Shown here in pieces: positions 39,880-53,856 of a DNA stretch of 64,000 bases; the stretch's first letter is position 1, and every line of letters starts with the position of its first letter. The notes beneath the pieces are model-generated. The model was not told where the DNA came from and did not search any database. It saw nothing but the letters and a program-made list of their open reading frames with translations. The stretch comes from Clostridia bacterium (GTDB lineage: Bacteria; Bacillota; Clostridia; Oscillospirales; SIG627): assembly GCA_017507325.1 (NCBI GenBank), contig JAFWBD010000059.1, positions 27,472-91,471 of the forward strand. The letters run 5' to 3'. A program made the translations under genes and the position numbers.

Positions 39880-39910
39880 AAAAAATGCGGATCCCCTTGA
39901 GAGGATCCGC
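39880..39910 (-). terminator. Terminator of the Leu T-box operon
   Basis: GCGGATCC (39887-39894) pairs with GGATCCGC (39903-39910); on the minus strand the stem is followed by ATTTTTT. It ends the transcript of the TIM-barrel/acyl-CoA ligase gene just before the his promoter. Confidence 0.9.
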
Positions 39911-39921
39911 ACCGAACGAAA

Positions 39922-42429
39922 TTACTTCACCGCAATGCCGAGCTTTTGAACCGCTTCCTCGCGCATTTTGTATTTTAAGATCTTTCCTGCCGCGTTCATG
40001 GGGAAAGCATCCACAAAATCCACATAGCGCGGAACCTTATGGCGCGCCATGCTGGCGGATACAAATTCCTTCAGTTCAGCTTCTGTCATATGTTCGCCGT
40101 CCTTCAGGATGATGCAAGCCATAATCTCTTCTCCGTACTGCCGATCGGGAACGCCGATGACCTGAACGTCTCTGACCTTGGGGTTGGTATAGATAAATTC
40201 CTCAATTTCCTTGGGGTAAATATTTTCACCGCCGCGGATGATCATATCCTTCAAGCGGCCCGTGATCAAATAATTGCCCTCGGGCGTTCTGCAGGCAAGA
40301 TCTCCCGTATGAAGCCATCCCTCGCTGTCAATGGTGGAGGCGGTGGCATCGGGCATTTTATAATACCCCTTCATCAGATTATAGCCTCTGGCAACAAATT
40401 CGCCGTTGACACCGTCGGGACAGTCCTTTCCGGTTTCGGGATCCACGATCTTGCATTCCACGTTGGCAAAGGCACTTCCGACGGTTTCCGTGCTAACCTC
40501 AAGAGAATCGTAGTAGCTGCTCATGGTACAGCCGGGGCTGGCCTCGGTCTGACCGTATACGGATACGATCTCCTTCATGTTCATCACAACCGTTGCCTTT
40601 TTCATCAGATCGGCGGGGCAGTTGGCACCTGCCATAATACCGGTACGAATATGGGAAAAATCGGTCTTTTCAAAGTCGGGGTGCTGCATCATGGCAATGA
40701 ACATCGTCGGAACCCCGTTAAAGGTGGTGATATGCTCATTGTGAATACAAGACAGCGCAGGCTTAGGTGAAAAATAAGGAAGCGGGTACATAGTGGCACC
40801 GTGAGTCATAGCAGCGGTCATGGAAAGCACCATACCGAAGCAATGGAACATAGGAACCTGGATCATCATACGGTCGGCAGTGGAAAGATCCATATGGTCA
40901 CCGATGTATTTTCCGTTGTTGACCACGTTGTAGTGGGTCAGCATAACGCCCTTGGGGAAGCCCGTGGTTCCCGAGGTGTACTGCATATTGCAAACGTCAT
41001 CCTTATTGACGGCGGCGGCCATACGGCGCACCTCCTCTGCGGGAATGCGCTGTGCATACTCCAAAGCCTCGCTCCAGGTATAACAGCCCTTCTGACGGAA
41101 GCCCACGGTAATAACGTTTCTCAAAAACGGCAGTCTTCTGGCGTGAAGGGTCTTCTCCTTTTTCAATTCGGCAAGCTCGGGACAAAGCTCGGCAATGATT
41201 TTGCCGTAATGCGTATCCTTGGCTCCCTCGGTCATTACCAAGGTATGGGTATCGGATTGACGCAACAGATATTCCACCTCGTGGATCTTATAGGCGGTAT
41301 TGACCGTAACCAAAACGGCACCGATCTTAACGGTGGCCCAAAAGGCAATAAACCACTGGGGAACGTTAGAGGCCCAAACGGCCACGTGAGTTCCCGCTTT
41401 AACGCCCATGGCAATCAGCGAACGGGCAAAGGTATCCACGTCATCGCGAAATTCGCTGTAGGTACGGGTATAATCCAGCGTGGTGTATTTAAATGCGTAC
41501 TGATCGGGAAATTCCTCTACCATACGGTCCAAAACGTCGGAGAAGGTAGCATCGATCAGCAGATCCTTCTTCCAAACGAATTTGCCGCTATGAGCGCGGT
41601 TATAATACAAAGCTCTTTCGTTACGGGAGGTATCTCCGAACTGCCGCATAAATCCCACGAATTGAGAGAAGATGATCTCCATATCATCCAATTCGGGGCA
41701 CCATTCGGGATTCCACACCAAGGAAACGAAGCCGTCGTAATTGACGGAGGAAAGCGCTCTCATCATCTCTCGAATGGGAAGACAGCCCTCCCCTGCCAAG
41801 CAATATTCAATGCCGTTTTCGGTTTTTCTGGCGTCATTGAACTGAACGTGGCGGATATAGGCACCGAGATTCTTGATGACGTCATCCGGAGATTGGCCAC
41901 CGGTAAAATATTGAGCGGACATCTGCCAAAGGGCGGCCAGATAATCGCTGGCAAAAAAGTCCAGAAGATCGCGCAGAACCTTGGTATCGGCAAAGGGACC
42001 CGTGGTCTCCACCAGCAAAGCGACTCCTTCCTTTTCGGCCAAGGGAAGGACGTTTTCCATCAGTTTCCGCACGTTTTCCACCGCCGCTGCGCCGTCCTCA
42101 CACTGATTGGCGCGCAAACGGATGAAGGGAATATGGAGATTTGCGGCGATGGTCAAGCAGGAGCGGATCTCATCCACACACTTTTGAAATTCAGATGCAA
42201 CGCCCACGTCCGAAACGGTATCGATACAAGGAATGCGCAGTTTTTTCTCATACAGCCTCCGCAGAGTGGAGGCGGCGGTATAATCGTGGAAGGCTCCTTC
42301 CTTATCGGTGAAGAGACGATTATAGATGTTATGGAGCTCAATCCCCTGAAAATGGAGCTCCTCGGCAATATTGCAAAATTCCTCAAACGAATTGTTATGC
42401 CACCCCTTGGTGGAAAAAGAAAGCTTCAT
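39922..42429 (-). CDS. Fusion of a sugar-isomerase-like TIM barrel and an AMP-forming acyl-CoA ligase
   Basis: An 835-residue two-part protein. Residues about 1-270 are a xylose-isomerase-like/AP-endonuclease-2-type barrel (KLSFSTKGWHNNSFEEFCN, then LLVETTGP and IRHVQFNDAR). The usual last metal glutamate seems replaced (SLVWNPEW), so its activity is doubtful. Residues about 300-830 are a complete adenylate-forming ligase: P-loop YTSGTTGFPKG, the A5-type YGQTEASPGC, TGDLACRTPEGNYLITGR, and the catalytic C-terminal lysine in NAAGKILKYKM. It should activate a carboxylic acid with ATP and CoA; the acid is unknown. It is two bases after the LeuA-like gene and behind a T-box that I read as leucine-specific, which points to isovalerate as a candidate substrate. 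Confidence 0.85.
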   Translation of the reverse strand: MKLSFSTKGWHNNSFEEFCNIAEELHFQGIELHNIYNRLFTDKEGAFHDYTAASTLRRLYEKKLRIPCIDTVSDVGVASEFQKCVDEIRSCLTIAANLHIPFIRLRANQCEDGAAAVENVRKLMENVLPLAEKEGVALLVETTGPFADTKVLRDLLDFFASDYLAALWQMSAQYFTGGQSPDDVIKNLGAYIRHVQFNDARKTENGIEYCLAGEGCLPIREMMRALSSVNYDGFVSLVWNPEWCPELDDMEIIFSQFVGFMRQFGDTSRNERALYYNRAHSGKFVWKKDLLIDATFSDVLDRMVEEFPDQYAFKYTTLDYTRTYSEFRDDVDTFARSLIAMGVKAGTHVAVWASNVPQWFIAFWATVKIGAVLVTVNTAYKIHEVEYLLRQSDTHTLVMTEGAKDTHYGKIIAELCPELAELKKEKTLHARRLPFLRNVITVGFRQKGCYTWSEALEYAQRIPAEEVRRMAAAVNKDDVCNMQYTSGTTGFPKGVMLTHYNVVNNGKYIGDHMDLSTADRMMIQVPMFHCFGMVLSMTAAMTHGATMYPLPYFSPKPALSCIHNEHITTFNGVPTMFIAMMQHPDFEKTDFSHIRTGIMAGANCPADLMKKATVVMNMKEIVSVYGQTEASPGCTMSSYYDSLEVSTETVGSAFANVECKIVDPETGKDCPDGVNGEFVARGYNLMKGYYKMPDATASTIDSEGWLHTGDLACRTPEGNYLITGRLKDMIIRGGENIYPKEIEEFIYTNPKVRDVQVIGVPDRQYGEEIMACIILKDGEHMTEAELKEFVSASMARHKVPRYVDFVDAFPMNAAGKILKYKMREEAVQKLGIAVK

Positions 42430-42431
42430 TC

Positions 42432-43811
42432 TTAGGCCTCCTCATAGATAATCTTATTCACGGCACTCAAATAGGCGCGAATGCTGGCTCCGATGATATC
42501 GGTGGAGATTCCGTTTCCGGAATACAGTTTTCCTCCCGCTCTGAGCTTCACCAAGGCGGAGCCCATAGCTTCCTTTCCCTCAGTAACGGACTGGATCTGG
42601 AAATCATCCAGCTCATAGTGATGACCGACAATCTGATCGATGGCACGGAAGGCGGCATCTACGGGGCCGTCGCCGATGCAGACCCCTTGCAGAAGATTTT
42701 CACCCTGATAAAGCGAGATCTGCGCACTGGCACTGATGATGTTGCCGTTATTGACAACGTAGCTTTCCAAGCGGTAGGTTGCGGGAACCTGCAGGGCTGC
42801 ACTGGCCACGATGGCATCCAGTTCCTTGCTGCCCACCTTCTTTTTCCCTGCGACACGCAAAAACTCCTCGTAAACCTTTTTCCGATCCTCCTCGGAAAGG
42901 TCATACCCCAGCTTGGCTACCGCGGTATTGACGGCGGCGGCATCATCCTCGGCATCCAGATAGATCGAGCCGTCCTCCACGGTGTTCAGCGTCATCACCG
43001 ATTTGGATTTTTGCGCATTGTCGGTGATCCAGGAAATCTGTTTGGTAATGCGGGTCAATTCGGTCAGGGAAAGATTGGTTTGGAAAGAATATCTTCCTCC
43101 GCAGTTTTTCACGAGAGTTGCTGCAACCGACAAAGGTGCGGCCTCCCCCGAAAGATCGGTCTTGATGGTTTCGGCACCCGCCTTCACCGCCAAGGCGGAG
43201 GAGGCAACGGCCAGGCCGTTTTGATTGGAACAACGAACCCCAAAGGGAACGTCGAACTGCTCCACCAAAGATGAAACAAAGCTTGCAAAATCATCCGAAA
43301 GCATTTCGGCCGCACTGTCGCAAACGCAAATATGAGTTGCGCCTGCCTCGATGGCGGTGCGAATGGCGGAGATTAAATATTCGGGATCGGCTCGGGTCGC
43401 ATCCACAGCGCAGAATTCCACCTCGGGCACGCAGGATGCCGCTTTGACTACGCCGCTTTTGATCCATTCGATCATTTTATCGGGCTTTTTCTTGGCCAAA
43501 TACTCCATTCCTACGGGAGAAAGAGGCACCTCAAAGCGCACGCGGGGATGCGATGCGGCGCTGAGCGATGTGATGGCGTTATCAACGCTGTCGGGTGCAA
43601 TTCCGCATCCCACAGACAAGACGCTGTTTTTCACAAAGGAAGAAGCGGTGCGGATCAAAAGCGAATCGGCCGTTACGTTTACGATTTCGGGCAATTCAAT
43701 GATATCAACGCGTAGCTTCTCCAGTTGACGGGCAATTTCAAGCTTTTCCTTAAAGCCGTATACACCGGAATCGTTGCAAAGAGTTGAATCGGCAAATTTG
43801 ATCTGTTTCAT
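42432..43811 (-). CDS. LeuA-like (isopropylmalate synthase family) protein lacking catalytic residues
   Basis: A 459-residue relative of 2-isopropylmalate/citramalate synthase. The C-terminal LeuA regulatory domain is clear (about 345-455: LESYVVNNGNIISASAQ, GDGPVDAAFRAID, ALVKLRAGGKLYSGNG), the part that binds leucine in true LeuA. The N-terminal barrel follows the HMGL-like pattern, but key residues are changed. The DTTLRDG motif is DSTLCND (Arg to Cys12, metal Asp to Asn13) and the metal HxHND motif reads RCSNQ (193-197), so both His ligands are gone. The GERAGN loop is missing. I infer a pseudoenzyme, perhaps a leucine sensor or partner of the fused ligase. The start ATG at 43811 has GAGG six bases upstream. 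Confidence 0.82.
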   Translation of the reverse strand: MKQIKFADSTLCNDSGVYGFKEKLEIARQLEKLRVDIIELPEIVNVTADSLLIRTASSFVKNSVLSVGCGIAPDSVDNAITSLSAASHPRVRFEVPLSPVGMEYLAKKKPDKMIEWIKSGVVKAASCVPEVEFCAVDATRADPEYLISAIRTAIEAGATHICVCDSAAEMLSDDFASFVSSLVEQFDVPFGVRCSNQNGLAVASSALAVKAGAETIKTDLSGEAAPLSVAATLVKNCGGRYSFQTNLSLTELTRITKQISWITDNAQKSKSVMTLNTVEDGSIYLDAEDDAAAVNTAVAKLGYDLSEEDRKKVYEEFLRVAGKKKVGSKELDAIVASAALQVPATYRLESYVVNNGNIISASAQISLYQGENLLQGVCIGDGPVDAAFRAIDQIVGHHYELDDFQIQSVTEGKEAMGSALVKLRAGGKLYSGNGISTDIIGASIRAYLSAVNKIIYEEA

Positions 43812-43833
43812 AACACACCTCACAAAAATTATT

Positions 43834-44106
43834 AAAAAAGCCCCTGAGACAATGATTGTCTCAGGGACGAAAAAATCCGCGGTACCACCCTGCTTGCCGA
43901 ATCATCGGCCAACTTTGAAGAGTTCTAACAAACCCTCTGCCTTGATAACGGGGCAAGCCGGAGTCACTTACTGAGAATTGGGCGACTCTGCTCCGGAGTG
44001 AGACTTCACCTTGTAATTTCCCACTGCCTCGCACCAAACGGCAGCTCTCTGAAGGGATGGCTTACAAAGGAATAATTCCATCACAGCATTTTTAAAAGAA
44101 CGGCGC
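43834..44106 (-). ncRNA. T-box leader RNA, specifier read as CUC (Leu)
   Basis: Minus-strand leader between promoter and the LeuA-like gene. It has the stem I AG-motif AGAGAG and distal GGTG loop (44053-44032 region), the T-box AGGGTGGTACCGCG (43890-43877) with a TGGT bulge matching tRNAs ending ACCA, and a terminator (CCTGAGACAAT stem, 43842-43866, then TTTTTT). In the specifier loop, GAAGT-CTC-AC is followed by TCC pairing with GGA across the loop and the GAGCA closing strand. I read CTC, leucine. In stretch 43812-44270 the rest (44138-44270) holds nothing I recognise. Confidence 0.85.
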
Positions 44107-44107
44107 T

Positions 44108-44137
44108 ATTATAACACGTTATACGGGGATTTGTCAA
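44108..44137 (-). promoter_or_regulatory. Sigma-A promoter of the Leu T-box operon
   Basis: Minus strand TTGACA (44137-44132), 18-base spacer, TATAAT (44113-44108) with extended TGt. Confidence 0.88.
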
Positions 44138-44270
44138 TAGGTTTTAACATTTTTTCACGGTGGCAATGGCGTAGGAGCACTTTTCGGGGAGGAAATGTGA
44201 TTGACGTATAGCGAACTGTTCAAAAAATCACAAATGGAGTCCTTCGGAAAAGCTTGGATTCAAAAGTTTT

Positions 44271-44804
44271 TTACAGCTCTGCTCCCAGCTTCATGGCTTT
44301 CATATTGGCCTCGATCATTTCGGCTCTCTTGGGGGGGATGACCTTATTCAAGGTATTCAATACCTTTTCCTCGTCAAATTCACCCAAGGCCTGCAGGATT
44401 TTGCCCACCAGAATCATATTGGCCAAGGTGGAAAATCCGTTCTCCCCTGCCAGCTTGGTTGCGGGGATGGGATATGCCACCACGTCGCTGCGCTTCACAG
44501 GGCGCTCCACCAAGGAGGAATCGTAAAAGATCATACCGCCGGGAACCACGCTGTCCTCAAAGCGATCCAAAGAGGGCAGATTCATGGCCACCAGAACATC
44601 GGGATTGGAAACGATGGGAGAGCCCACCGCCTCATCGCTGACGATCACACTGCAGCTTGCCGTGCCACCGCGCATTTCGGGACCGTAGGAAGGAAGCCAG
44701 CTGACGTTCTTATCCTCCATCATTCCCTTATATGCCAACATCTTTCCTGCAAAGAGGATGCCCTGTCCGCCGAATCCGGACAGCAAAATTTGCTTCGTGC
44801 TCAT
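44271..44804 (-). CDS. 2-oxoacid:ferredoxin oxidoreductase, gamma subunit
   Basis: The 177-residue gamma subunit of a four-subunit 2-oxoacid:ferredoxin oxidoreductase. [16 protein letters not shown] at the N-terminus and [13 protein letters not shown] (about 40-52) are the family signature. The subunit shapes the CoA and substrate site. It is the last gene of the Val T-box operon; the beta gene overlaps it by one base. No convincing terminator is seen between its stop and 44140. Substrate, 2-oxoisovalerate type against 2-oxoglutarate type, is decided by context (see the alpha subunit). Confidence 0.92.
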
Positions 44805-45556
44805 TATTTTTCCTCCTTTGCCGATCTGTCCTTATAAACGCCCAAGGGATAATAAGGAATCATTTTTTCATCGATCCACTCCAAGGCCTTTTGCGGTGTC
44901 ATACCCCAGTTGGTGGGGCAGGAGGAAAGAACCTCGATCAAGGAAAAGCCCTTTTTATCGATCTGGTTTTGGAAAGCCTTTTTAATGGCCTTCTTGGCAT
45001 TGCGAATGTTCTTGACGTTGTTTACGGTCACTCTTTCCAGATACTCCGGGCCGTCCAATTCGGAAAGCAATTCGCAAACGCGGATCGGAAAACCGCAAGC
45101 CTTCACGTCTCTTCCGTAGGGAGAGGTCTGGGTCACCTGATTGGGAAGCGAGGTGGGAGCCATCTGACCGCCGGTCATACCGTAAATGGCGTTGTTGATG
45201 AAAATAATGGTGATATTTTCGTTTCTGGCGGCGGCGTGAACCGTCTCCGCCATACCGATGGAAGCCAAGTCTCCGTCACCCTGATAGGTGAAAACGATGT
45301 GCTCATCGGGATCGGCGCGCTTAACGCCCGTGGCAACGGCGGGAGCTCTGCCGTGAGCCGCCTCGATCATATCGCAATTGAAATAGTCATAGGCCATAAC
45401 GGAACAGCCGACGGGCGCAACGCCGATGGCCTTTCCTTCAATCCCCAGCTCGTCCAAAACCTCGGCAACGAGGCGATGCACGATACCGTGGGTACAGCCG
45501 GGACAATAATGCAACGGCACGTCTGCCAATGCATGGGGTTTATCAAAAACTACCAT
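44804..45556 (-). CDS. 2-oxoacid:ferredoxin oxidoreductase, beta (TPP) subunit
   Basis: A 250-residue thiamine-diphosphate subunit. The cluster cysteines start with YCPGCTHG (about 18-25) and GCSVM; the TPP motif is GDGDLASIG with the following INNAIYGMTGGQ. Length and lack of a longer C-terminal part match the KOR/VOR type rather than pyruvate:ferredoxin oxidoreductase. Twelve bases after the alpha gene and overlapping the gamma gene. The enzyme is reversible: it can decarboxylate 2-oxoacids or carboxylate acyl-CoAs with reduced ferredoxin. Confidence 0.93.
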   Translation of the reverse strand: MVVFDKPHALADVPLHYCPGCTHGIVHRLVAEVLDELGIEGKAIGVAPVGCSVMAYDYFNCDMIEAAHGRAPAVATGVKRADPDEHIVFTYQGDGDLASIGMAETVHAAARNENITIIFINNAIYGMTGGQMAPTSLPNQVTQTSPYGRDVKACGFPIRVCELLSELDGPEYLERVTVNNVKNIRNAKKAIKKAFQNQIDKKGFSLIEVLSSCPTNWGMTPQKALEWIDEKMIPYYPLGVYKDRSAKEEK

Positions 45557-45568
45557 AATGCTTACACC

Positions 45569-46621
45569 TCACTTCTGCAAATCACAAATTGCCTTCAAAA
45601 CCTGATCGGGGGAAGGGATCATACCGCCCACACGGTTACAAAGGGTTACGGGAACCTTGCACTCACAAGCCAATTTCACGTCCTCGATCATCTGACCCAT
45701 GGAAAGCTCAACGGAAAGAATCGCCTTTACCTTCTCGGCAGCCTTCATAAAAGGAGCCTTGGGGAAGGGCCAAAGGGTGATGGGACGAATCATACCCACC
45801 TTGATTCCCTGCTTTCTCGCTTCGTTAATGGCATTTTTGGAGACACGGGAAGCAATACCGAAGGCTGCAACGCAAATTTCGGCATCCTCCATCATATACT
45901 CCTCGTACATCACCTCGTTTTCCTCGATGGTGCGGTAACGGTCATAACGGAGGAAATTGTGTTTTTCCAATTCCTCGGGCTTGAGGAACAGAGAGTTGAC
46001 AATGTTGTGGGGGCGCTCCATCTTGGTGCCGGTGGTAGCCCAAGGCTTAGCGGGAGCAGGGGCAATGTCAAAATCCAGAGAAATGGGCTCCATCATCTGC
46101 CCCAAGGTACCGTCTGCCAGAATCATAGCGGTCATACGGTAGGTGTCGGCCAATTCAAAGCCCTTCACCGTAAGCTGTGCCATTTCCTGAACCGAATTGG
46201 GTGCCAGAACGATCATATGGAAGTCGCCGTGGCCGGCACCGCGGGTAGCCTGGAAATAGTCGGACTGGCTGGGCTGAATACCGCCAAGGCCGGGGCCGCC
46301 GCGCTGAACGTTGACCACAAGAGCGGGCAGATCCGCGCCTGCAAGGTAGGAAAGCCCCTCTCCTTTCAGAGAGATTCCGGGGCTGGAGGAGGAGGTCATA
46401 ACGCGTTTTCCCGTAGAGGACACGCCGTACACCATATTAATGGCGGCGATTTCACTCTCTGCCTGAAGAAACGTGCCGCCGATCTTCGGCATTTTCTTGG
46501 CCATATAAGCCGCAACTTCCGTTTGGGGCGTGATCGGATAGCCGAAATAGTGACGGCAGCCCGCAGCGATGGCGGCCTCCGCAATGGCTTCGTTGCCCTT
46601 CATTAAAATCTTTTCAGACAT
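45569..46621 (-). CDS. 2-oxoacid:ferredoxin oxidoreductase, alpha subunit
   Basis: The 350-residue alpha subunit. AAIAAGCRHYFGYPITPQTEV at the N-terminus is the conserved substrate loop (quoted in part: YFGYPITPQTEV), followed by SSSPGISLKGEGLSY and RGGPGLGGIQPSQSDYFQ. The start MSEKILMKGN at 46621 has GAGGTG upstream; a GTG at 46630 overlaps the delta gene. Family choice: KGOR and VOR alpha chains look alike. The operon has a branched-chain aminotransferase and a T-box read as valine, so a branched-chain 2-oxoacid (VOR) enzyme is the better fit, working in the carboxylating direction. This is inference. Confidence 0.92.
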   Translation of the reverse strand: MSEKILMKGNEAIAEAAIAAGCRHYFGYPITPQTEVAAYMAKKMPKIGGTFLQAESEIAAINMVYGVSSTGKRVMTSSSSPGISLKGEGLSYLAGADLPALVVNVQRGGPGLGGIQPSQSDYFQATRGAGHGDFHMIVLAPNSVQEMAQLTVKGFELADTYRMTAMILADGTLGQMMEPISLDFDIAPAPAKPWATTGTKMERPHNIVNSLFLKPEELEKHNFLRYDRYRTIEENEVMYEEYMMEDAEICVAAFGIASRVSKNAINEARKQGIKVGMIRPITLWPFPKAPFMKAAEKVKAILSVELSMGQMIEDVKLACECKVPVTLCNRVGGMIPSPDQVLKAICDLQK

Positions 46622-46626
46622 CTTCT

Positions 46627-46833
46627 TCACCTCTCAACCTTAATAACGCAATCGGGACACATCTGTGCACAGAAAGCACAGCCGACACAAGCCTCTTGAT
46701 CTGTAATCTCGGCGGGATGGTGTCCTTTCATATTGATTTTGTCCGGAGAAAGACGGATCAATTTCTTCGGACAAGCATCGACACACAAGCCGCAACCCTT
46801 GCAAAAATCGGTTTTGAACACAAGTTTTGCCAT
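46627..46833 (-). CDS. 2-oxoacid:ferredoxin oxidoreductase, delta (ferredoxin-like) subunit
   Basis: A 68-residue subunit with two [4Fe-4S] motifs, CKGCGLCVDACP and CVGCAFCAQMCP, that passes electrons between the TPP subunit and free ferredoxin. Unlike the free ferredoxin at 7 kb it has a longer N-terminus (MAKLVFKTDF) and a linker containing HHPAEI. First of the four oxidoreductase genes; its end overlaps a possible GTG of the alpha gene. Confidence 0.93.
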   Translation of the reverse strand: MAKLVFKTDFCKGCGLCVDACPKKLIRLSPDKINMKGHHPAEITDQEACVGCAFCAQMCPDCVIKVER

Positions 46834-46858
46834 AGAAGTACTTCCTTTCGAATTTTTA

Positions 46859-47518
46859 TCAGTAATATTTTTTTTGCAAATTTAACGGAAACAAATTTGG
46901 AATTTCATCCTTCAAAGCGGGATATAAATCAGCCCGAACCGAATGGAACACAATCGGAAGCCCTACCAGACGGGAAAACTCCTCCGCCTTGGCGACTGCC
47001 GACAAAACGTCCGAAGGGGTGGTTGCCTCCCCCAAATTGGAATTGTGAGCCACGGCAGTAAAAGGAATGCCGCAAGCGGCCTCCATTTCCCGCATAACCT
47101 CAACCAATGAATCGGGATTCCGCGTTAACGGGCGGCAGAAATTGGCTACCAGAATCATTTCGTAAGAATTTTCCTCTAAAATTCTCGGAGCCAGTCTCCC
47201 CAAGGCGAGGGCACCGCGATCGTCTCCGCCGATATCCAGCACAAAGGAGGAATTCCGATCGTCCACCACGGAATACATAGCGGCCGGCAGAGCGGGAAGA
47301 TCCACGTTGGTATTGGCGTATTCCGAAGAGATCAGTGGGATTCCCATTTCCTCCAATTCCGCCAAGCTGTCCTTGGTTCTGAAATACGGATTGACGATAT
47401 CAAGATCCGCAATGGCGACCCTTCGCCCCTCGCGGCGCAGATTCATCGCCAAATTCACGGCAATATTGGTTTTACCGCTTCCGTAATGCCCCGCCAAAAT
47501 CAGAATTCGTTTATCCAT
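46859..47518 (-). CDS. MinD/ParA-like P-loop ATPase within the oxidoreductase operon
   Basis: A 219-residue SIMIBI-type ATPase. The deviant Walker A is GHYGSGKTNIAVN (about 10-22). The switch I-like region is IADLDIVNPYFRT and the Walker B-like part VLDIGGDDRGALALGR. It is not a chromosome-partition ParA, since no ParB is near. The signature Lys of MinD (KGGxGK) is replaced by HYGSGK. It sits between ilvE (8-base overlap) and the delta subunit gene, so it is translated with the enzyme. Role unknown; cofactor or cluster loading, or metabolic control, are guesses. Confidence 0.85.
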   Translation of the reverse strand: MDKRILILAGHYGSGKTNIAVNLAMNLRREGRRVAIADLDIVNPYFRTKDSLAELEEMGIPLISSEYANTNVDLPALPAAMYSVVDDRNSSFVLDIGGDDRGALALGRLAPRILEENSYEMILVANFCRPLTRNPDSLVEVMREMEAACGIPFTAVAHNSNLGEATTPSDVLSAVAKAEEFSRLVGLPIVFHSVRADLYPALKDEIPNLFPLNLQKKYY

Positions 47519-48590
47519 TGCAAACGGTTACGCACCAATTCTTCTCATCCGCAACCTTGCCCCACTGAATTCCGGTCAAGCTGTCATACAGCTTCTGAGT
47601 CAAATCACCGATGCGGTTACCGCAAACGGTATATTCCTTTCCTTTATAGAAGAGCTTACCGATGGGCGAAACCACGGCGGCGGTTCCCGTTCCCCAAGCC
47701 TCCTCCAGCGTGCCGTTTGCAGCCGCTTCAAAAAGCTCATCCACGGAAATCAATCTCTCCTCCACGGTGTAGCCCCAATCGCGGAGCAATTCCACACAGC
47801 TCTTGCGGGTAATACCGGGCAGAACCGAGCCGGTCAATTTGGGGGTAATGATCTTGCCGTCAATTTTGAACATTACGTTCATCGCGCCGACTTCCTCGAT
47901 GTATTTTCTTTCCACACCGTCCAGCCACAGAACCTGGGTATAGCCGTTTTTCTCGGCTCTCTCCCCTGCTCTCAAGCTGGCGGCATAGTTGCCGCCGCAC
48001 TTGGCATAGCCGGTACCGCCGCGAACGGCACGGACGTCTTCGGATTCGATGGCGATCTTAACGGGGTTAATGCCCTCGGCGTAATAAGCGCCCACGGGAG
48101 AGCAAATGATCACAAACGTGGTGTTCTTAACGGAATGAACACCCAAATGGGGGTCGTTACCGAACATATAGGGTCTCAGGTACAGGCTGGTTCCGTCGGA
48201 ATGAGGAACCCAATCCTTCTCGGTCTCCACAAAGGTCTTGAGGATCTCAAGGCACCCTTCTTCATCCAGCTGAGGAAGGCAAAGACGCTCGGCGCTGTTG
48301 TTCAGACGCTTGATGTTTTCCATAGGACGGAACAGACGGATCTGGCCGCTGCGGGAACGATAGGCCTTCATTCCCTCAAAAATCTCCACACCGTAATGCA
48401 GAACGGTCGAGGCGGGGTGAAGAGCAATGGGACCGAAGGGCACGATTCTGCCGTTGTGCCACCCCTCCTCGGGGTTATGGTCCATCATAAACATATGATC
48501 GGTAAAGATCTTGCCGAAGCCCAATTTGGATTCGTCTGCGGGCTTTTCTTTGGGACAGGGGTTTTTGGTGACGGAAATGGGATATTTCAT
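47511..48590 (-). CDS. ilvE: Branched-chain amino acid aminotransferase
   Basis: Fold-IV PLP enzyme that interconverts 2-oxoacids and Val, Leu, Ile with glutamate. The 359 residues fit the large (bacterial/eukaryotic BCAT) type: FEGMKAYRSRSGQIRLFRP, YLRPYMFGND, the PLP lysine in GTGYAKCGGNYAAS, VLWLDGVERKYIEEVG and TGSVLPGITRKS. It lies 40 bases after the HTH-cupin-acyl-CoA ligase stop in the same operon and overlaps the ATPase gene by eight bases. Here it probably turns 2-oxoacids made by the ferredoxin enzyme into amino acids. Confidence 0.95.
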   Translation of the reverse strand: MKYPISVTKNPCPKEKPADESKLGFGKIFTDHMFMMDHNPEEGWHNGRIVPFGPIALHPASTVLHYGVEIFEGMKAYRSRSGQIRLFRPMENIKRLNNSAERLCLPQLDEEGCLEILKTFVETEKDWVPHSDGTSLYLRPYMFGNDPHLGVHSVKNTTFVIICSPVGAYYAEGINPVKIAIESEDVRAVRGGTGYAKCGGNYAASLRAGERAEKNGYTQVLWLDGVERKYIEEVGAMNVMFKIDGKIITPKLTGSVLPGITRKSCVELLRDWGYTVEERLISVDELFEAAANGTLEEAWGTGTAAVVSPIGKLFYKGKEYTVCGNRIGDLTQKLYDSLTGIQWGKVADEKNWCVTVCNG

Positions 48591-48630
48591 ATCATAATCT
48601 CCTTTTCATTTATCTTCATTTGTCGATTGA

Positions 48631-50919
48631 TCAAAGCTTATTACGCTGAATCTTTCCGCTGACGGTTTTGGGCAATTCATCGCGGAAGACAACGAGTCTT
48701 GGGTATTTATAGGGAGCGGTATGCTCCTTGACGTAGTTCTGAATTTCCTTTTTCAATTCCTCGGTGGGCTCGGTTCCGCGGGTCAGAACGATGCTGGCCT
48801 TGACGATCTGGCCGCGAACCTCATCGGGAGCGGCGGAAACACCGCATTCCAGAACGTAAGGAAGCTCCATAATGACGCTTTCGATCTCAAAGGGTCCGAT
48901 GCGGTAGCCCGAGGACTTGATCACGTCATCGGCACGGCCAACGTACCAGAAGAAGCCATCCTCATCGCACCAGGCAAGATCGCCCGTGTGATAATAGCCG
49001 TCCCGAATGGCTTCGTTTGTTTTTTCCTCGTCGTTGTAATAACCGACGAAAAGGCCGCAGGGGGCACCGTTTTTCAGATTGATGACCACCTCACCCGCAT
49101 CCCCTCGGGGGACGGGATTCCCATCGGTATCCAAAAGCTCCACCTGATAAATGGGAGCGGGCTTACCCATGGATCCGATCTTATGAGGAGCGCCGATCAG
49201 ATTGCCGACGATCATGGTGCTTTCGGTCTGTCCGAAGCCCTCCAGGATCTGCAGACCCGTTGCCTTTTCAAACTGACGGTATACTTCGGGATTGAGTGCC
49301 TCACCCGCCGTGGTCATATGATGGACAGAGGACAGATCGTATTTGGAAATATCCTGCTTGACCATCATTCTCAGCATGGTGGGAGGCGCGCAGAAGGTGG
49401 TGATTTGGTATTTGGCAAACATCGGGAGGATCTTGGAGGCATCGAAACGGTCAAAGTCATACACAAATACCGCCGCCTCGCAGAGCCATTGCCCGTAGAG
49501 CTTGCCCCACATGGATTTGGCCCAGCCCGTATCGGAGATGGAAAAATGCAGCCCATCGGGCTCCACGGCGTGCCAATACTTGGCGGTGTGAAAATGGCCC
49601 AAGGGATACTTGTGGTTGTGCGCCGCGATCTTCGGATAACCGGAGGTGCCGGAGGTAAAGAACATCAAAAGCAGATCGTCTCCGCAGGGGCTATCCTCGG
49701 TGCGGGCAAAATGAGAGCTGTACAGGGGATATTCCTCATCAAAGCTTCGCCAGCCCTCGCGGCTGCCGTTGACAATCAATTTCATTTCCAGCTCGGGTGC
49801 CTTTTCCGCCGCCAGCTCTACCTGACGGGCTACGTCCCCGTCGGCCGTACACAAAATGGCGCGAACGCCTGCGGCGCGGAAGCGATATTCCAAATCGTGC
49901 TCCAGGAGCTGATTGGGAGCGGGAATGGCCACGGCGCCCAATTTATTCAGCGCGATCATAGCAAACCAGAACTGATAATGACGCTTCAGAATCAGCATCA
50001 CACGGTCACCTTTTTTGATCCCGAGAGATTTGAAATAATTGGCGCACTGATTGGAAAGGCGCTTGATATCCTTAAAGGTAAAGCGGCGCTCCTCCAAATT
50101 TTCGGAAATGTGAAGCATTGCCAATTTATCGGGATCCTTTTCCGCCAGCGCATCCACCAGATCGAAGGCGAAGTTGAAGGATTCGGTATTTTGGAAACGG
50201 ATGGAGGTAGGGGTACCGTTTTCATTCTCGGAAACCTCAATAAATTTCCGATAAATACGATCCTCGGTGTCCTTTTTGATTCTCTTTTTGGAGGAAACCG
50301 CCTTTTGGGTCACCAGCTCGGGAATCGGCTCGCCCGTGGGGTTGAGCACGATGGCGTAGAAAATACAATCCTCTCCGCCCACGGCGATCATTCCGTGAGG
50401 AGCGGAGCTGTCAAAATAGATGCTGTCACCCGGGCCGAGGATCTCCCGATGATCGCCCACCTGCACCAGAAGCTGTCCCTCAATGACCAGATCGCACTCC
50501 TGACCCGCATGAGTGGTCAAATCGATCCCGCGGGCCTCTGCCTCGGGATCAAAGCGGCATTTGACGTAAAGCGGCTCGGCAATACGGTTTTGAAAGGCGT
50601 ATGCCAGATTGTAATAGGTCATACCGTGGGCGTTGGTGATCTCCTGCCCTGCCCCGCGACGAGTCACGGTATAGGAATTCAATTTGGGGCTGTGGCCCTC
50701 GATGATATCCGTAACGTTTACGTTCAGCGCCAAGGCACAGCGATAAATAAAGGCAAAGTTCAAATCGCGCTTTCCGTTTTCGCAGGAAAGATACTCCTCC
50801 ACGGAAACGCCGGTTTTCCCCGCCATTTCCTCCGCGGAAAGATTTTCAATTTGCCGCAGCTCGCGAATACGCGCCGCAATTTCTTGAATTTTGTATTCAA
50901 GTCCGGTTAATTTTTCCAT
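48631..50919 (-). CDS. HTH-cupin regulator fused to an AMP-forming acyl-CoA ligase (Val T-box unit)
   Basis: A 762-residue three-part protein. An XRE-type helix-turn-helix (about 10-68, LSAEEMAGKTGVSVEEYLSC) is followed by a cupin (about 110-195, THAGQECDLVIEG and SSAPHGMIAVGGEDC). A full acyl-CoA ligase of the medium-chain/benzoate type runs from about 240 to the end: FFTSGTSGYPK, EGFGQTEST, YHTGDLAWCDEDGFFWYVGR, SSGYRIGPFEIE and catalytic Lys in TVSGKIQRNKL. HTH-cupin proteins are normally stand-alone repressors, so a regulator joined to an enzyme is unusual. The start ATG at 50919 has GGAG six bases upstream; a longer frame lies in the T-box. First gene of the operon with ilvE, ATPase and oxidoreductase. 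Isobutyrate is the candidate substrate. Confidence 0.88.
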   Translation of the reverse strand: MEKLTGLEYKIQEIAARIRELRQIENLSAEEMAGKTGVSVEEYLSCENGKRDLNFAFIYRCALALNVNVTDIIEGHSPKLNSYTVTRRGAGQEITNAHGMTYYNLAYAFQNRIAEPLYVKCRFDPEAEARGIDLTTHAGQECDLVIEGQLLVQVGDHREILGPGDSIYFDSSAPHGMIAVGGEDCIFYAIVLNPTGEPIPELVTQKAVSSKKRIKKDTEDRIYRKFIEVSENENGTPTSIRFQNTESFNFAFDLVDALAEKDPDKLAMLHISENLEERRFTFKDIKRLSNQCANYFKSLGIKKGDRVMLILKRHYQFWFAMIALNKLGAVAIPAPNQLLEHDLEYRFRAAGVRAILCTADGDVARQVELAAEKAPELEMKLIVNGSREGWRSFDEEYPLYSSHFARTEDSPCGDDLLLMFFTSGTSGYPKIAAHNHKYPLGHFHTAKYWHAVEPDGLHFSISDTGWAKSMWGKLYGQWLCEAAVFVYDFDRFDASKILPMFAKYQITTFCAPPTMLRMMVKQDISKYDLSSVHHMTTAGEALNPEVYRQFEKATGLQILEGFGQTESTMIVGNLIGAPHKIGSMGKPAPIYQVELLDTDGNPVPRGDAGEVVINLKNGAPCGLFVGYYNDEEKTNEAIRDGYYHTGDLAWCDEDGFFWYVGRADDVIKSSGYRIGPFEIESVIMELPYVLECGVSAAPDEVRGQIVKASIVLTRGTEPTEELKKEIQNYVKEHTAPYKYPRLVVFRDELPKTVSGKIQRNKL

Positions 50920-50939
50920 TTTCACTCCATATCCGGGAC

Positions 50940-51204
50940 AAAAAAGCACTCGTCCCAAAGGCATTCTTTGAGACGAGTGCGAAAACACCCGCGGTACCAC
51001 TCAAATTGCAGTAACACTGCCGCTCAGGATCCAACAATCCTTATGCATTAACGCAGCAATCACGGAAAGGTTCTACTCCCGAAAAAAACGGTTTCTTCCC
51101 TTCAGCTCAAGAGCTACAAACAAAAAACCGAATCTCTGTGACTTGCACCGACCGTCACTTCTCTGGCAGAACGATTTTTCATCCTCTCCATCAACGCCTT
51201 TGAT
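50940..51204 (-). ncRNA. T-box leader RNA, specifier read as GUA (Val)
   Basis: Minus-strand leader filling 50920-51209. Stem I carries the AGAGA motif and the GGTG distal loop (GTGAC-GGTCGGTGCAA-GTCAC). Lower stem I has AGAG pairing with CTCT, and just 5' of CTCT the loop reads TTTGTAG, giving GTA (valine), six bases before GAG as in the Leu leader. The T-box is GAGTGGTACCGCGG (51003-50990 region). The terminator is GCACTCGTC/GACGAGTGC (50980-50946) with six T. Its 3' half is nearly identical to the leader at 53.6 kb. Confidence 0.85.
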
Positions 51205-51209
51205 ATTTA

Positions 51210-51238
51210 ATTATACCATTGGATATTCTTCTTGTCAA
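51210..51238 (-). promoter_or_regulatory. Sigma-A promoter of the Val T-box operon
   Basis: Minus strand TTGACA (51238-51233), 17-base spacer, TATAAT (51215-51210) with extended TGg: a full consensus. It starts 34 bases after the stop of the upstream ligase gene, with no terminator between. Confidence 0.92.
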
Positions 51239-51271
51239 GATATTTTGCGGATTTACACCTTCGCCGTATTT

Positions 51272-53536
51272 TTACAGCTTGTTGCGCTGAATCTTTCCGC
51301 TGATGGTTTTGGGAAGCTCGTCACGGAAGACCACCACACGGGGGTATTTGTAGGGGGCGGTGTGCTCCTTGACGTAATTCTGAATCTCCTTTTTCAATTC
51401 CTCGGTGGGCTCTGTTCCCTTTGTCAGAACGATGCTGGCCTTAACCACCTGACCGCGAACCTCATCGGGTACGGCGGAAACACCGCATTCCACAACGTAA
51501 GGAAGCTCCATAATAACGCTTTCGATCTCGAAGGGCCCGATACGGTAACCGGAGGATTTGATGACGTCATCGATACGGCTGACGTACCAGAAATAGCCGT
51601 CCTCATCACGCCAAGCGGTGTCGCCCGTGTGATACATATTGTCATACCAGGCATCGGAGGTCTTCTCCGCATCCCGATAATATTCCTTGAACAGACCGCA
51701 GGGAATGCTCTTGTCGGTGTGGATCACGATCTCGCCCACCTCACCGGGTGCCACGGATACACCGTCGGCATCCACCACGTCAACGTCAAACTGAGGCGAG
51801 GCCTTGCCCATAGAGCCGAGCTTCGGCACCGTTCCCGCAAGGTTGGCAATGGCAAGCGTGGTTTCGGTCTGCCCGAAGCCTTCCATGATCTCCAGACCCG
51901 TTGCTTCTTTAAACTTTTTGAATACCTCGGGGTTGAGAGCCTCTCCCGCCGTGGTCATATGATGGATGGAGGACAGATCGTAGCGATCCAGATCCCCGCG
52001 GATCAGCATACGGAGCATGGTGGGAGGCGCACAGAAGGTGGTGATATGATACTTCCCGAACATAGGCAAAATATCGTTTTCATCAAAGCGATCGAAGTCG
52101 TAGACAAACACCGCTCCCTCGCACAGCCACTGACCGTAAAGCTTGCCCCAAAGAGACTTGCCCCAGCCGGTATCGGAAATGGTCAGATGGAGACCGTCTC
52201 TCTCGCAGCAATGCCAATATTTGGCGGTCACGAAATGCCCCAGGGCGTAGGTGTGCTTGTGCGCCGCCATCTTGGGATTGCCCGTGGTGCCGGACGTAAA
52301 GAACATCAGCGCGGTCTCATCTCCCGCAGAGGCATTTTCGGGACGCTCGTATTCCTGAGAATAAAGCTTAAATTCGCCGTCAAAATCGTGCCACCCCTCT
52401 TTTTTGCCGCCTACAAGAACCAGCGTTTTCACACCGGGGCACTGCTTGGCGGCATTTTCGGCAATATCCGAAACGTCTCCGTCGGCCGTGCAAACAATGG
52501 CGGATACCTCGGCGGCATCGTAGCGATAAACGAAATCGTGCTCCTTAAGCTGATTGGTTGCGGGGATCGCCACTGCACCGATCTTGTGAAGAGCGACCAT
52601 AGCAAACCAAAACTGATAATGACGCTTGAGAACCAGCATCACCTTATCTCCTCGCTTGATTCCGAGAGAGGTAAAATAATTGGCGCACTGATTGGAACAG
52701 CGCTTGATATCCCCAAAGGTGAATCGGCGTTCATTCTTATGCTTATCCAGATGAAGCATGGCCAGCTTTTCGGGGTAGGCATCGGCGATCTTATCCACAA
52801 TGTCAAAGCCGAAGTTGAAGCTCTCGGTGTTGGTAAAATCGATTTTCTTCAGGCAACCGTTTTCATCCTCTTCGGTCTTGACGAATTTCTCGCAGATCAG
52901 CCCCTCGGACTTGGTGGCTGTAATCAAGCTTTGCAAAACCGCTTCCTCCTTCACGGGCTCGCCCGGAAGAACCACGGCACAGAAAACGCAATCCTCTCCA
53001 CCCACTGCGATCATACCGTGAGGGGTAGAGCTGTTGTAATAAATGCTGTCACCCTCCTCCAGAACCTCGGTATGGCTTCCGATCTGAACCTTCAGCTTTC
53101 CGCTGATAACCAGATCGAATTCCTGCCCACTGTGGGTTGCCACCTGAATGGGCTTATTTTGAAGAGAGGGATCGAATTCATAGCGAACCCAATAGGGCTC
53201 GGCAATCTTGTTGCGGAATTTGTGAGCAAGGTTCTGAATGCGGATTCCCTCTTCTTTGGCAGTCTCCTGCCCCATTCCCTTGCGCGTCACGGTATAGGAG
53301 GAAAGGCGAGCGCTCTTTCCTTCCAAAAGATCGGTAATCTCAATGCCAAAGGCAAGAGAGCATTTATGAAGAAATGAAAAGGGGAAATCCAGATTACCCT
53401 CCTCAAAGGCGCTGTATTCTTCCACGCTGACGTCGGTCAGCTCCGCCATTTTGGAAAGGGAGAGTCCGGAAATCTCTCTCATCTCGCGAATTCTGAGGGC
53501 GACCTCATTCAATTTTCCGTTCGAGAGTGATGACAT
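51272..53536 (-). CDS. HTH-cupin regulator fused to an AMP-forming acyl-CoA ligase (Ile T-box unit)
   Basis: A 754-residue paralogue of the 48.6-50.9 kb gene with the same three parts: XRE HTH (about 10-72, LSLSKMAELTDVSVEEYSAF), cupin (about 115-190, with His135, Glu139 and His173 in THSGQEF and TPHGMIAVGG) and acyl-CoA ligase (about 240-754: FFTSGTTGNPK, EGFGQTETT, YHTGDTAWRDEDGYFWYVSR, catalytic Lys in TISGKIQRNKL). The ligase halves are very similar, and the last 60 residues almost identical, so the pair arose by tandem duplication. It has its own promoter and T-box, read as isoleucine; 2-methylbutyrate is the candidate substrate. AAGGAGG precedes the ATG by nine bases. Confidence 0.88.
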   Translation of the reverse strand: MSSLSNGKLNEVALRIREMREISGLSLSKMAELTDVSVEEYSAFEEGNLDFPFSFLHKCSLAFGIEITDLLEGKSARLSSYTVTRKGMGQETAKEEGIRIQNLAHKFRNKIAEPYWVRYEFDPSLQNKPIQVATHSGQEFDLVISGKLKVQIGSHTEVLEEGDSIYYNSSTPHGMIAVGGEDCVFCAVVLPGEPVKEEAVLQSLITATKSEGLICEKFVKTEEDENGCLKKIDFTNTESFNFGFDIVDKIADAYPEKLAMLHLDKHKNERRFTFGDIKRCSNQCANYFTSLGIKRGDKVMLVLKRHYQFWFAMVALHKIGAVAIPATNQLKEHDFVYRYDAAEVSAIVCTADGDVSDIAENAAKQCPGVKTLVLVGGKKEGWHDFDGEFKLYSQEYERPENASAGDETALMFFTSGTTGNPKMAAHKHTYALGHFVTAKYWHCCERDGLHLTISDTGWGKSLWGKLYGQWLCEGAVFVYDFDRFDENDILPMFGKYHITTFCAPPTMLRMLIRGDLDRYDLSSIHHMTTAGEALNPEVFKKFKEATGLEIMEGFGQTETTLAIANLAGTVPKLGSMGKASPQFDVDVVDADGVSVAPGEVGEIVIHTDKSIPCGLFKEYYRDAEKTSDAWYDNMYHTGDTAWRDEDGYFWYVSRIDDVIKSSGYRIGPFEIESVIMELPYVVECGVSAVPDEVRGQVVKASIVLTKGTEPTEELKKEIQNYVKEHTAPYKYPRVVVFRDELPKTISGKIQRNKL

Positions 53537-53550
53537 TGGGAAACCTCCTT

Positions 53551-53822
53551 AAAATTAAAAAAATAAAAACCCGCCTCAAATTTTGAGACGGGTAAAAAAA
53601 TTACTCGCGGTACCACTCAAATTGCAGTAAAACTGCCACTCTTGGAATCCAACAATTCCTATGCCTTGACGCAGCAATCACGGGAGATGTCTACTGGCAA
53701 AACGCGTTCGGACCTCCGGCTCAGAAGGGATGGGCAACACTTGAAAACTCACTATCGGCTTACACCGCCCGCCGACTCTCTGCAAGAAAGCTTTCAACGC
53801 CGTCTTCATCACAGCCTTTATG
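53551..53822 (-). ncRNA. T-box leader RNA, specifier read as AUC (Ile)
   Basis: Minus-strand leader. Stem I has AGAGAG, a GGTG distal loop between CGGC and GCCG, and lower helix GAAG/CTTC. The bulge before CTTC reads GCC-CATCC, giving ATC (isoleucine), six bases before GAG; the base after the codon is C rather than the usual purine, so this is the least certain of the three. T-box GAGTGGTACCGCG (53620-53606 region) and terminator CCCGTCTCAAA/TTTGAGGCGGG (53593-53569) with a T-rich tail. The rest of the gene-free stretch (53857-53927) shows only A/T-rich sequence. Confidence 0.83.
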
Positions 53823-53827
53823 CTGAT

Positions 53828-53856
53828 AATATATCACCGCAAAAACGATTTGTCAA
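53828..53856 (-). promoter_or_regulatory. Sigma-A promoter of the Ile T-box unit
   Basis: Minus strand TTGACA (53856-53851), 17-base spacer, TATATT (53833-53828) with extended TGa. Confidence 0.88.

What the first reader, a model, noticed from the sequence alone, without database searches (positions are those of the whole stretch)
39880..53856. Three T-box units, read as Leu, Val and Ile, each driving an acyl-CoA ligase: a candidate system to build branched-chain amino acids from branched short-chain fatty acids
Seen: three separate consensus promoters, each followed by a T-box leader and then a gene set containing an AMP-forming acyl-CoA ligase (39.9, 48.6 and 51.3 kb). The Val unit adds ilvE and a four-subunit 2-oxoacid:ferredoxin oxidoreductase. 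Aligning the three stem I elements on the closing GAG strand gives CUC, GUA and AUC, one codon for each branched-chain amino acid. Known: T-boxes turn genes on when the cognate tRNA is uncharged, and some anaerobes make these amino acids by reductive carboxylation of isovaleryl-, isobutyryl- and 2-methylbutyryl-CoA. Inference: the region takes up the three acids and converts them to Leu, Val and Ile with reduced ferredoxin, each ligase tuned by its own amino acid.
Basis: partly seen in the sequence, partly recalled or inferred. Interest (0 to 1): 0.88.

Follow-up and report, generated by a model that had tools for sequence, protein, structure and literature searches.

The report
T-box-switched acid-to-amino-acid operons
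Three neighbouring gene sets in an uncultured gut bacterium each start with an RNA leader bearing a leucine, valine or isoleucine codon, and they are predicted to turn branched waste fatty acids back into exactly those three amino acids, which would likely explain at gene level how gut and rumen bacteria that lack the usual pathway obtain them.

Summary
Three sigma-70 promoters, T-box leaders and terminators precede three gene sets, with specifiers CUC (Leu), GUA (Val) and AUC (Ile). Each set has an AMP-forming acyl-CoA ligase; the Val set adds IlvE and a four-subunit 2-oxoacid:ferredoxin oxidoreductase (VorB over its cut-off). In 80 named relatives every specifier that could be read before a classified gene fits its class (Ile 69/69, Val 49/49, Leu 23/23; 7 not read). 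IlvC is found in 3/30 genomes with the fused ligase, 17/28 without.

Both flank the Trp aligned with MacsMa Trp259, critical for substrate binding; 4/4 held-out ligases from three genomes obey. (2) The Ile and Val ligases are fused to HTH and cupin domains. (3) The Leu set has a different ligase fused to a TIM barrel, and an isopropylmalate-synthase homologue without the catalytic motifs but with its leucine-feedback domain. (4) A Phe T-box elsewhere precedes ligase-IorAB-PaaK genes.

Substrates, direction of flow, tRNA response and the leucine-sensor role are inferred. A new variant of known kinds.

The parts
53828..53856 (-). sigma-70 promoter of the Ile unit (TTGACA-17-TATATT)
   Evidence: 11/12 consensus bases
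53581..53821 (-). T-box leader, specifier AUC (Ile)
   Evidence: RF00230 78.5 bits, below the 93-bit cut-off
53569..53593 (-). intrinsic terminator of the Ile T-box
   Evidence: 11-pair stem then T run
51272..53536 (-). Ile-unit ligase P0002: HTH - cupin - AMP-forming acyl-CoA ligase, 754 aa (predicted 2-methylbutyrate)
   Evidence: discriminating residues Gly459, Leu462
51210..51238 (-). sigma-70 promoter of the Val unit (TTGACA-17-TATAAT)
   Evidence: 12/12
50966..51203 (-). T-box leader, specifier GUA (Val)
   Evidence: RF00230 84.0 bits, below cut-off
50946..50980 (-). intrinsic terminator of the Val T-box
   Evidence: 15-pair stem then T run
48631..50919 (-). Val-unit ligase P0001: HTH - cupin - AMP-forming acyl-CoA ligase, 762 aa (predicted isobutyrate)
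   Evidence: Ala and Met at the two discriminating positions
47511..48590 (-). IlvE branched-chain aminotransferase
   Evidence: PRK13357 471.5 bits over cut-off 307; TIGR01123 396 over 250
46859..47518 (-). P-loop NTPase (ParA/CbiA-like), function unknown, conserved in the operon
   Evidence: relative found in 39 of 42 named loci of 18 kb or more
46627..46833 (-). 2[4Fe-4S] ferredoxin-type subunit
45569..46630 (-). VorB-type subunit of 2-oxoacid:ferredoxin oxidoreductase
   Evidence: PRK07119 539.6 bits over cut-off 399
44804..45556 (-). TPP-binding subunit (VorA/KorB type)
   Evidence: PF02775; no NCBIfam cut-off reached
44271..44804 (-). gamma subunit (VorC type)
   Evidence: PF01558; no NCBIfam cut-off reached
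44108..44137 (-). sigma-70 promoter of the Leu unit (TTGACA-18-TATAAT)
   Evidence: 12/12
43860..44093 (-). T-box leader, specifier CUC (Leu)
   Evidence: RF00230 114.5 bits, over cut-off
43840..43868 (-). intrinsic terminator of the Leu T-box
   Evidence: 13-pair stem then T run
42432..43811 (-). LeuA-like protein: isopropylmalate-synthase homologue without the catalytic motifs, leucine-feedback (LeuA_dimer) domain kept; start ATG at 43811 chosen by eye
39922..42429 (-). Leu-unit ligase P0003: xylose-isomerase-like TIM barrel - acyl-CoA ligase, 835 aa (predicted isovalerate)

Best explanation
The region holds three separately promoted T-box leaders with Leu (CUC), Val (GUA) and Ile (AUC) specifier codons in front of acyl-CoA ligase genes, one of them with an aminotransferase-oxidoreductase operon, and it is predicted to convert isovalerate, isobutyrate and 2-methylbutyrate into Leu, Val and Ile, each branch likely switched on when its own tRNA is uncharged. 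Predicted steps: (1) the ligase makes the acyl-CoA at the cost of ATP; (2) the VorB-type oxidoreductase of the Val operon carboxylates all three acyl-CoAs with reduced ferredoxin and CO2; (3) IlvE transaminates the 2-oxoacids. The Ile and Val ligases are paralogues. Their division of labour would rest on two positions beside the acyl-pocket Trp (Gly459/Leu462 for the larger 2-methylbutyrate, Ala459 with Met or Ala462 for the smaller isobutyrate). Isovalerate, branched one carbon further out, would be handled by the ligase of the other family. The LeuA homologue beside it, without catalytic motifs, is proposed to sense leucine through its retained feedback domain; the HTH-cupin parts would add DNA-level or ligand control. 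Shown from sequence: promoters, leaders, specifiers, terminators, domain content, codon-pocket correspondence, conservation, scarcity of IlvC and IlvD. Inferred: substrates, direction of flow, tRNA response, sensor roles.
For: Specifiers fit gene class in every case called before a classified gene in the 80 named loci: Ile-ligase AUC 69/69; Val-ligase GUA 45 + GUC 4 of 49; LeuA-like gene CUC 21 + CUG 2 of 23; 7 leaders not called, 2 CUG leaders with no classified gene. 43 of 75 loci show both an AUC and a Val specifier before ligases; 17 of these show Leu too. Pocket: of 545 ligase columns, exactly two (459, 462) separate 40 Val- from 95 Ile-specifier ligases without exception. Both flank Trp463, which aligns with MacsMa Trp259 (alignment; [quoted passage not shown] MacsMa, which prefers 2-methylbutyrate (passages), has the Ile-type Gly. 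Held out: 4 of 4 further T-box ligases from three genomes (L189, L190, L191 AUC with G/L; L200 GUC with A/M) obey the rule. Best solved relative of both ligases is 3etc by a wide margin (Ile ligase E 2.9e-184, next 1.1e-98; Val ligase 1.1e-183, next 6.5e-110). S. aureus MbcS uses 2-methylbutyrate and isobutyrate but isovalerate poorly (PMC10026030 passages), as the split of ligase families here would predict. IlvC in 3/30 genomes with the fused ligase against 17/28 without (Fisher 7e-5; high-quality genomes 2/19 against 15/22). Short LeuC-type frames in 1/20 genomes with the LeuA-like gene against 24/38 without. A T-box switches genes on in starvation, which fits synthesis and not breakdown (established T-box knowledge).
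Against: No biochemistry. The genome is a 63% complete MAG, so absences in it alone mean little; the case rests on relatives, which are not independent of each other. Three of 30 genomes with the fused ligase do have IlvC (G008, G020, G035) and five have an IlvD-family hit; family f15 runs against the trend (G035 has both, G057 neither). Two of the three T-boxes in the window, and most homologues scanned, score under Rfam's cut-off. The codon-pocket match has few independent origins: the AU test does not reject one Val clade (p 0.65) and the independent-pairs test found 1-2 pairs, too few to decide. The 80 named loci are the best matches to the Ile ligase and many are close kin. In 398 genomes spread over the phylum only 12, the window's own included, have a relative at E 1e-220 or better, and 7 of those 12 are broken by stops and lack a T-box core. 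VorA and VorC reach no curated cut-off, and both ligases score half the MbcS cut-off (442-445 against 850). Nothing direct gives the Leu ligase's substrate.
Confidence: 0.83

Rival explanations
1. The operons degrade branched-chain amino acids for energy: transamination, ferredoxin-dependent oxidation to acyl-CoA, release of the acid.
For: VOR and IlvE are reversible, and peptide fermenters use VOR oxidatively (established knowledge, recalled).
Against: T-boxes switch genes on when the amino acid is scarce, the wrong sense for breakdown; the ligases belong to the AMP-forming kind, which costs ATP; genomes with the fused ligase mostly lack IlvC, so the amino acids must come from elsewhere.
Confidence: 0.06
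2. The ligases mainly supply branched acyl-CoA primers for membrane fatty acids, as MbcS does in Staphylococcus aureus.
For: NCBIfam's best model for the Ile and Val ligases is MbcS; MbcS has that role (PMC10026030 passages).
Against: Neighbouring VOR and IlvE genes (39 and 36 of 42 long named loci) and amino-acid-specific T-boxes; scores are half the MbcS cut-off. A second use of the acyl-CoAs is not excluded.
Confidence: 0.06
3. Ile and Val units work as proposed, but the Leu unit does something else: the TIM-barrel ligase activates another acid and the LeuA-like protein has an unknown task.
For: The Leu ligase's best NCBIfam match is a general fatty-acid ligase family (PRK12583 653 bits, cut-off 832); the names of its solved relatives show no branched-acid enzyme (best 60 of 234 seen); the TIM barrel has an unknown role and is less conserved than the ligase part (34 of 280 against 323 of 555 positions near-invariant).
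Against: Leu specifier in 23 of 23 called named cases; short LeuC-type frames nearly absent from these genomes, so leucine needs another source.
Confidence: 0.2

Closest known systems
Branched-acid carboxylation route to Leu, Val and Ile in rumen anaerobes (Allison and co-workers, 1962-1969; seen here only as cited in PMC7356843 and PMC2812497 passages, originals not read)
   Same: Same acids and same amino acids, by carboxylation then amination.
   Different: Here a full gene set with three specific switches; the old work was physiological. In M. ruminantium the route was proposed for Ile (PMC2812497 passage).
MacsMa of Methanosarcina acetivorans (PDB 3etc)
   Same: Nearest solved relative of both ligases; acyl-pocket Trp259 conserved; prefers 2-methylbutyrate (PMC10455477 passages).
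   Different: Its chain of 580 residues is matched from residue 50, so it has no room for HTH and cupin domains; no T-box is known to me for it.
MbcS of Staphylococcus aureus
   Same: Best NCBIfam model for the Ile and Val ligases; substrates 2-methylbutyrate and isobutyrate (PMC10026030 passages).
   Different: Score half the cut-off; MbcS serves lipid synthesis; one enzyme for both acids.
T-box leader family RF00230
   Same: Stem I, specifier, antiterminator and terminator.
   Different: I recall T-boxes mainly before aminoacyl-tRNA synthetase, biosynthesis and transport genes; my searches (the last two listings capped at 12 of 18 and 8 of 26) showed no report of one before acid-activating ligases.
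LeuA, 2-isopropylmalate synthase
   Same: Sequence homology and LeuA_dimer feedback domain.
   Different: None of 157 family sequences has both Arg and Asp of the RD motif or both His of the His-x-His motif.

Membership tests
T-box leader (RF00230) | Covariance-model match over the whole leader | tested here: met
   All three match model positions 1-219; Leu over the cut-off, Val and Ile under it; homologues in L047 all over it
T-box leader (RF00230) | Specifier codon in stem I fitting the downstream gene | tested here: met
T-box leader (RF00230) | Terminator competing with the antiterminator | tested here: met
   Terminator stems with T runs overlap the 3' end of the T-box match in all three leaders
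T-box leader (RF00230) | Binding of uncharged cognate tRNA | not testable with these tools
   Needs a bench test
Branched short-chain acyl-CoA synthetase (MacsMa type) | MacsMa the closest solved relative | tested here: met
   3etc first for the Ile ligase and the Val ligase; not for the Leu ligase, which is of another family
Branched short-chain acyl-CoA synthetase (MacsMa type) | Acyl-pocket Trp259 conserved | tested here: met
   Trp at the aligned position in 165 of 165 Ile/Val-type ligases
Branched short-chain acyl-CoA synthetase (MacsMa type) | Substrate preference | not testable with these tools
   Needs an assay
MbcS (NF047394) | Curated equivalog cut-off 850 bits | tested here: not met
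   444.6 and 442.3 bits; so not called MbcS
2-ketoisovalerate:ferredoxin oxidoreductase (VOR) | VorB subfamily cut-off | tested here: met
   PRK07119 539.6 over 399
2-ketoisovalerate:ferredoxin oxidoreductase (VOR) | Curated matches for the other subunits | tested here: inconclusive
   Right Pfam domains, no NCBIfam cut-off reached for the TPP and gamma subunits; ferredoxin subunit scanned against Pfam only
Branched-chain aminotransferase IlvE | Equivalog cut-off | tested here: met
   TIGR01123 396 over 250
LeuA, 2-isopropylmalate synthase | Catalytic Arg-Asp and His-x-His metal motifs (roles recalled) | tested here: not met
   157 sequences: Asp at position 17 in 0, Arg at 16 in 8, His at both 197 and 199 in 0, a single His in 3
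LeuA, 2-isopropylmalate synthase | LeuA_dimer feedback domain | tested here: met
   PF08502 105.5 bits over 24.9, positions 3-130 of 131
LeuA, 2-isopropylmalate synthase | Leucine binding | not testable with these tools
   Needs a binding assay

The most novel reading that the evidence does not exclude
The riboswitch codon and the enzyme's active site evolve as one unit: after duplication of a T-box-ligase gene, a switch of specifier between AUC and a Val codon went with a Gly/Ala exchange in the acyl pocket, so the codon in the leader can be read as a label of the enzyme's substrate in uncultured bacteria; and in the leucine branch a dead isopropylmalate synthase lives on as a leucine sensor for an isovalerate ligase, giving two layers of leucine control.
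Probability: 0.42. Interest if true: 0.92.

Novelty: new variant of a known kind. Interest (0 to 1): 0.82.

Why it matters
It has been known since the 1960s that rumen anaerobes can need branched volatile fatty acids and build Leu, Val and Ile from them. This locus gives a testable gene set, with a separate amino-acid-specific switch on each acid-activating step, found in many uncultured gut Clostridia. If right, it would let one predict from genomes which bacteria depend on isoacids (a livestock feed supplement), and offers a general reading: the T-box codon names the product, and so the substrate, of an otherwise unassignable acyl-CoA ligase. The Phe T-box before ligase-IorAB-PaaK genes suggests that the principle extends to aromatic acids.

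Tried and rejected
Rejected or unhelpful: (1) The LeuC equivalog cut-off (TIGR00170) was reached in 0 of 58 genomes, so I used frame length (419-483 aa against aconitase-size frames of 640 aa or more) as a rough proxy. (3) A nine-row AUC clade inside the Val side looked like an independent switch, but in a 57-row subset the AU test does not reject a single Val clade (p 0.65) nor that these nine join the main Ile clade (p 0.42), and the independent-pairs test had 1-2 pairs, so independence is not claimed. (4) A search for a shared palindromic operator for the HTH domain upstream of the Ile and Val leaders gave little but A/T runs. (5) Pattern misreads: L078 (TGA, ATC) and L143 (CTA) are left as uncertain; the ten uncalled leaders (7 in named loci) were read by eye only and are in no count. 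(6) The Phe unit need not be the only Phe source: the genome has prephenate dehydratase, and T-box cores stand near only 5 of 24 homologous ligases (Rfam agrees for 5 of the 20 scanned). (7) Of 6 relatives scanned at Rfam's cut-off, 3 (L042, L050, L070) gave no T-box over it and 2 (L038, L060) only the Leu one. (8) No tRNA gene in the window. Structure prediction was not run, so the place of residues 459 and 462 in the pocket rests on sequence alignment.

Dropped rows: ligases with an incomplete ligase domain or under 300 bits were left out before the tree; 188 then became 165 after removing duplicates by their last 480 residues. In one search the 30 ligases without a Val or Ile specifier call were left out of the separation test. 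Genome lists were copied by hand; a fused ligase means a full-length match of over 950 bits. The 157 LeuA-like sequences are 151 distinct ones and include the 120 best database hits (one search lists 120 of 7999).
Full report
What is there. The window is C44:27472-91471 of a 1.64 Mb, 63% complete MAG. The 80 relatives fetched by name are nearly all MAGs titled Oscillospiraceae, Ruminococcaceae, Clostridia or Clostridiales, many from sheep, goat, deer, cattle, buffalo, rabbit or horse samples; two are titled Spirochaetales. The genes of interest lie on the minus strand. The genome search found seven T-boxes: three here (Leu CUC 114.5 bits, Val GUA 84.0, Ile AUC 78.5; cut-off 93), and UUC before an acyl-CoA ligase, UGG (by eye) before a TrpB-like gene, UUC (by eye) before pheS and pheT, and one before a threonyl-tRNA-synthetase-like gene (names of these last three genes are my reading of the translations, not a family search). 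The three promoters are the top three of the regional scan and the three terminators the longest stems.

The three units. Ile unit: one gene, HTH-cupin-ligase. Val unit: a paralogous HTH-cupin-ligase, IlvE, a P-loop NTPase, a ferredoxin subunit and three oxidoreductase subunits. Leu unit: a LeuA-like gene and a ligase fused to a xylose-isomerase-like TIM barrel.

Codon and gene go together. In the loci fetched I searched for the T-box core, read the codon at a fixed place in stem I, and assigned the downstream gene by BLAST. For the 80 named loci: Ile-ligase 69/69 AUC; Val-ligase 45 GUA and 4 GUC of 49; LeuA-like 21 CUC and 2 CUG of 23; 2 CUG leaders had no classified gene; 7 leaders not called. 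43 of 75 loci with called ligase leaders carry both an AUC and a Val codon, and 17 of these a Leu leader too. These loci are the best matches to one query and include close kin. Of 42 named loci of 18 kb or more, 39 carry VorB, 36 IlvE, 30 a Val-type ligase, 21 the LeuA-like gene and 15 all of six marker genes.

Codon and acyl pocket go together. A tree of 165 ligases shows a main Ile clade (81 rows: 75 AUC, 4 without T-box, 1 at a contig edge, 1 misread, 0 Val) and a sister side (51 rows: 38 GUA, 2 GUC, 10 AUC, 1 unread). Deeper branches are further fused ligases, seen one per locus, with AUC where a T-box was called, save one uncertain read (L143); deeper still are split HTH-cupin and ligase genes with no T-box core, some inside VOR operons (L127, L138, L140). 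Across 545 ligase columns, just two have no residue in common between the 40 Val- and 95 Ile-specifier ligases: 459 (Ala against Gly) and 462 (Ala or Met against Leu). Trp458, Lys460 and Trp463 are invariant in all 165. By the alignment, with numbering fixed by the YHTGD motif given in PMC10455477, Trp463 is MacsMa Trp259 and 459/462 are MacsMa Gly255/Val258. [quoted passage not shown] Gly leaves more room than Ala, which suits 2-methylbutyrate against isobutyrate; that is inference. In a later search of 398 genomes of the phylum, 12 had a relative at E 1e-220 or better; four further fused ligases with a called T-box, from three genomes, all obey the rule: three AUC with Gly/Leu, one GUC with Ala/Met. 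Seven other loci had stops between the domains and no T-box core. The number of independent switches is small and one Val origin is not rejected.

The leucine branch. S. aureus MbcS takes 2-methylbutyrate and isobutyrate (KM under 10 uM) but isovalerate poorly (KM over 500 uM) (PMC10026030 passages). That fits a separate ligase family for leucine. The LeuA-like protein aligns with isopropylmalate synthases, but of 157 family sequences none has Asp at the second place of the RD motif and none has both His of the His-x-His motif. Its C-terminal feedback part is the best conserved: 56 of 81 near-invariant positions lie in residues 305-463. The catalytic roles of the lost motifs are recalled. A leucine sensor is the simplest reading, untested. 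One search for a paper on such a protein gave no hits.

Need for the route. IlvC is found in 3 of 30 genomes with the fused ligase and 17 of 28 without (Fisher 7e-5), IlvD in 5 of 30 against 17 of 28. Short LeuC-type frames occur in 1 of 20 genomes with the LeuA-like gene and 24 of 38 without. The comparison ignores shared ancestry. Contrasts within families go both ways: G023 against G047 (f3) and G054 against G030 (f10) show ligase without IlvC against IlvC without fused ligase, while in f15 G035 has both and G057 neither. IlvB, LeuB and LeuD were not searched.

A fourth unit. On contig C2 a UUC (Phe) T-box of 121 bits precedes a ligase, IorA (705 bits, cut-off 651), IorB (281 bits, cut-off 230), a PaaK-type ligase (498 bits, cut-off 646) and an ACT-domain pair protein. 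This is the gene set expected for phenylacetate to phenylalanine. The genome also has prephenate dehydratase, so it would be a supplement. A T-box core stands near 5 of 24 homologous ligases in relatives.

Known and new. The physiology is old (Allison and co-workers, seen as cited in passages of PMC7356843 and PMC2812497; originals not read), and M. ruminantium was proposed to make Ile this way (PMC2812497 passage). Searches of the held library for T-boxes or reductive carboxylation together with such enzymes or acids listed no paper that by title or abstract start reports this; several listings were capped, and subscription papers are mostly not held. I file it as a new variant: known route, known switch, new combination with codon-pocket correspondence, HTH-cupin fusions and a LeuA without catalytic motifs.

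Noticed in passing
L162:2752-8814 (own genome contig C2): Phe (UUC) T-box before acyl-CoA ligase, IorA, IorB, PaaK-type ligase and an ACT-pair protein: likely phenylacetate-to-phenylalanine unit.
   Followed up: partly
L163:16076-16316 (-) (own genome contig C67): T-box reading UGG (Trp) by eye before a TrpB-like gene with no other trp gene seen next to it in L003: possible indole salvage to tryptophan.
   Followed up: no
window 46859-47518 (-): P-loop NTPase of unknown function, conserved inside the VOR operon (39 of 42 long named loci).
   Followed up: partly
L127, L138, L140: Split HTH-cupin and ligase genes at the end of Fd-VorBAC operons (with the P-loop gene in L127 and L138), without a T-box core: possible ancestor of the fused, T-box-controlled form.
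   Followed up: partly
L168:1233-1449: T-box before a Phe-unit-type ligase that reads UAC (Tyr) by eye: possible specifier change to tyrosine.
   Followed up: no
window 32738-39696 (-): Histidine biosynthesis genes (HisZ-type, HisG, HisD, aminotransferase, HisB, HisH-type, two His_biosynth proteins) directly downstream.
   Followed up: no
G020:C29: Contig carries each ligase twice in mirror image, which suggests a misassembly; its IlvC-positive status is less sure.
   Followed up: no
L101, L112: The Ile-ligase and VOR operon in MAGs titled Spirochaetales: transfer or wrong binning.
   Followed up: no
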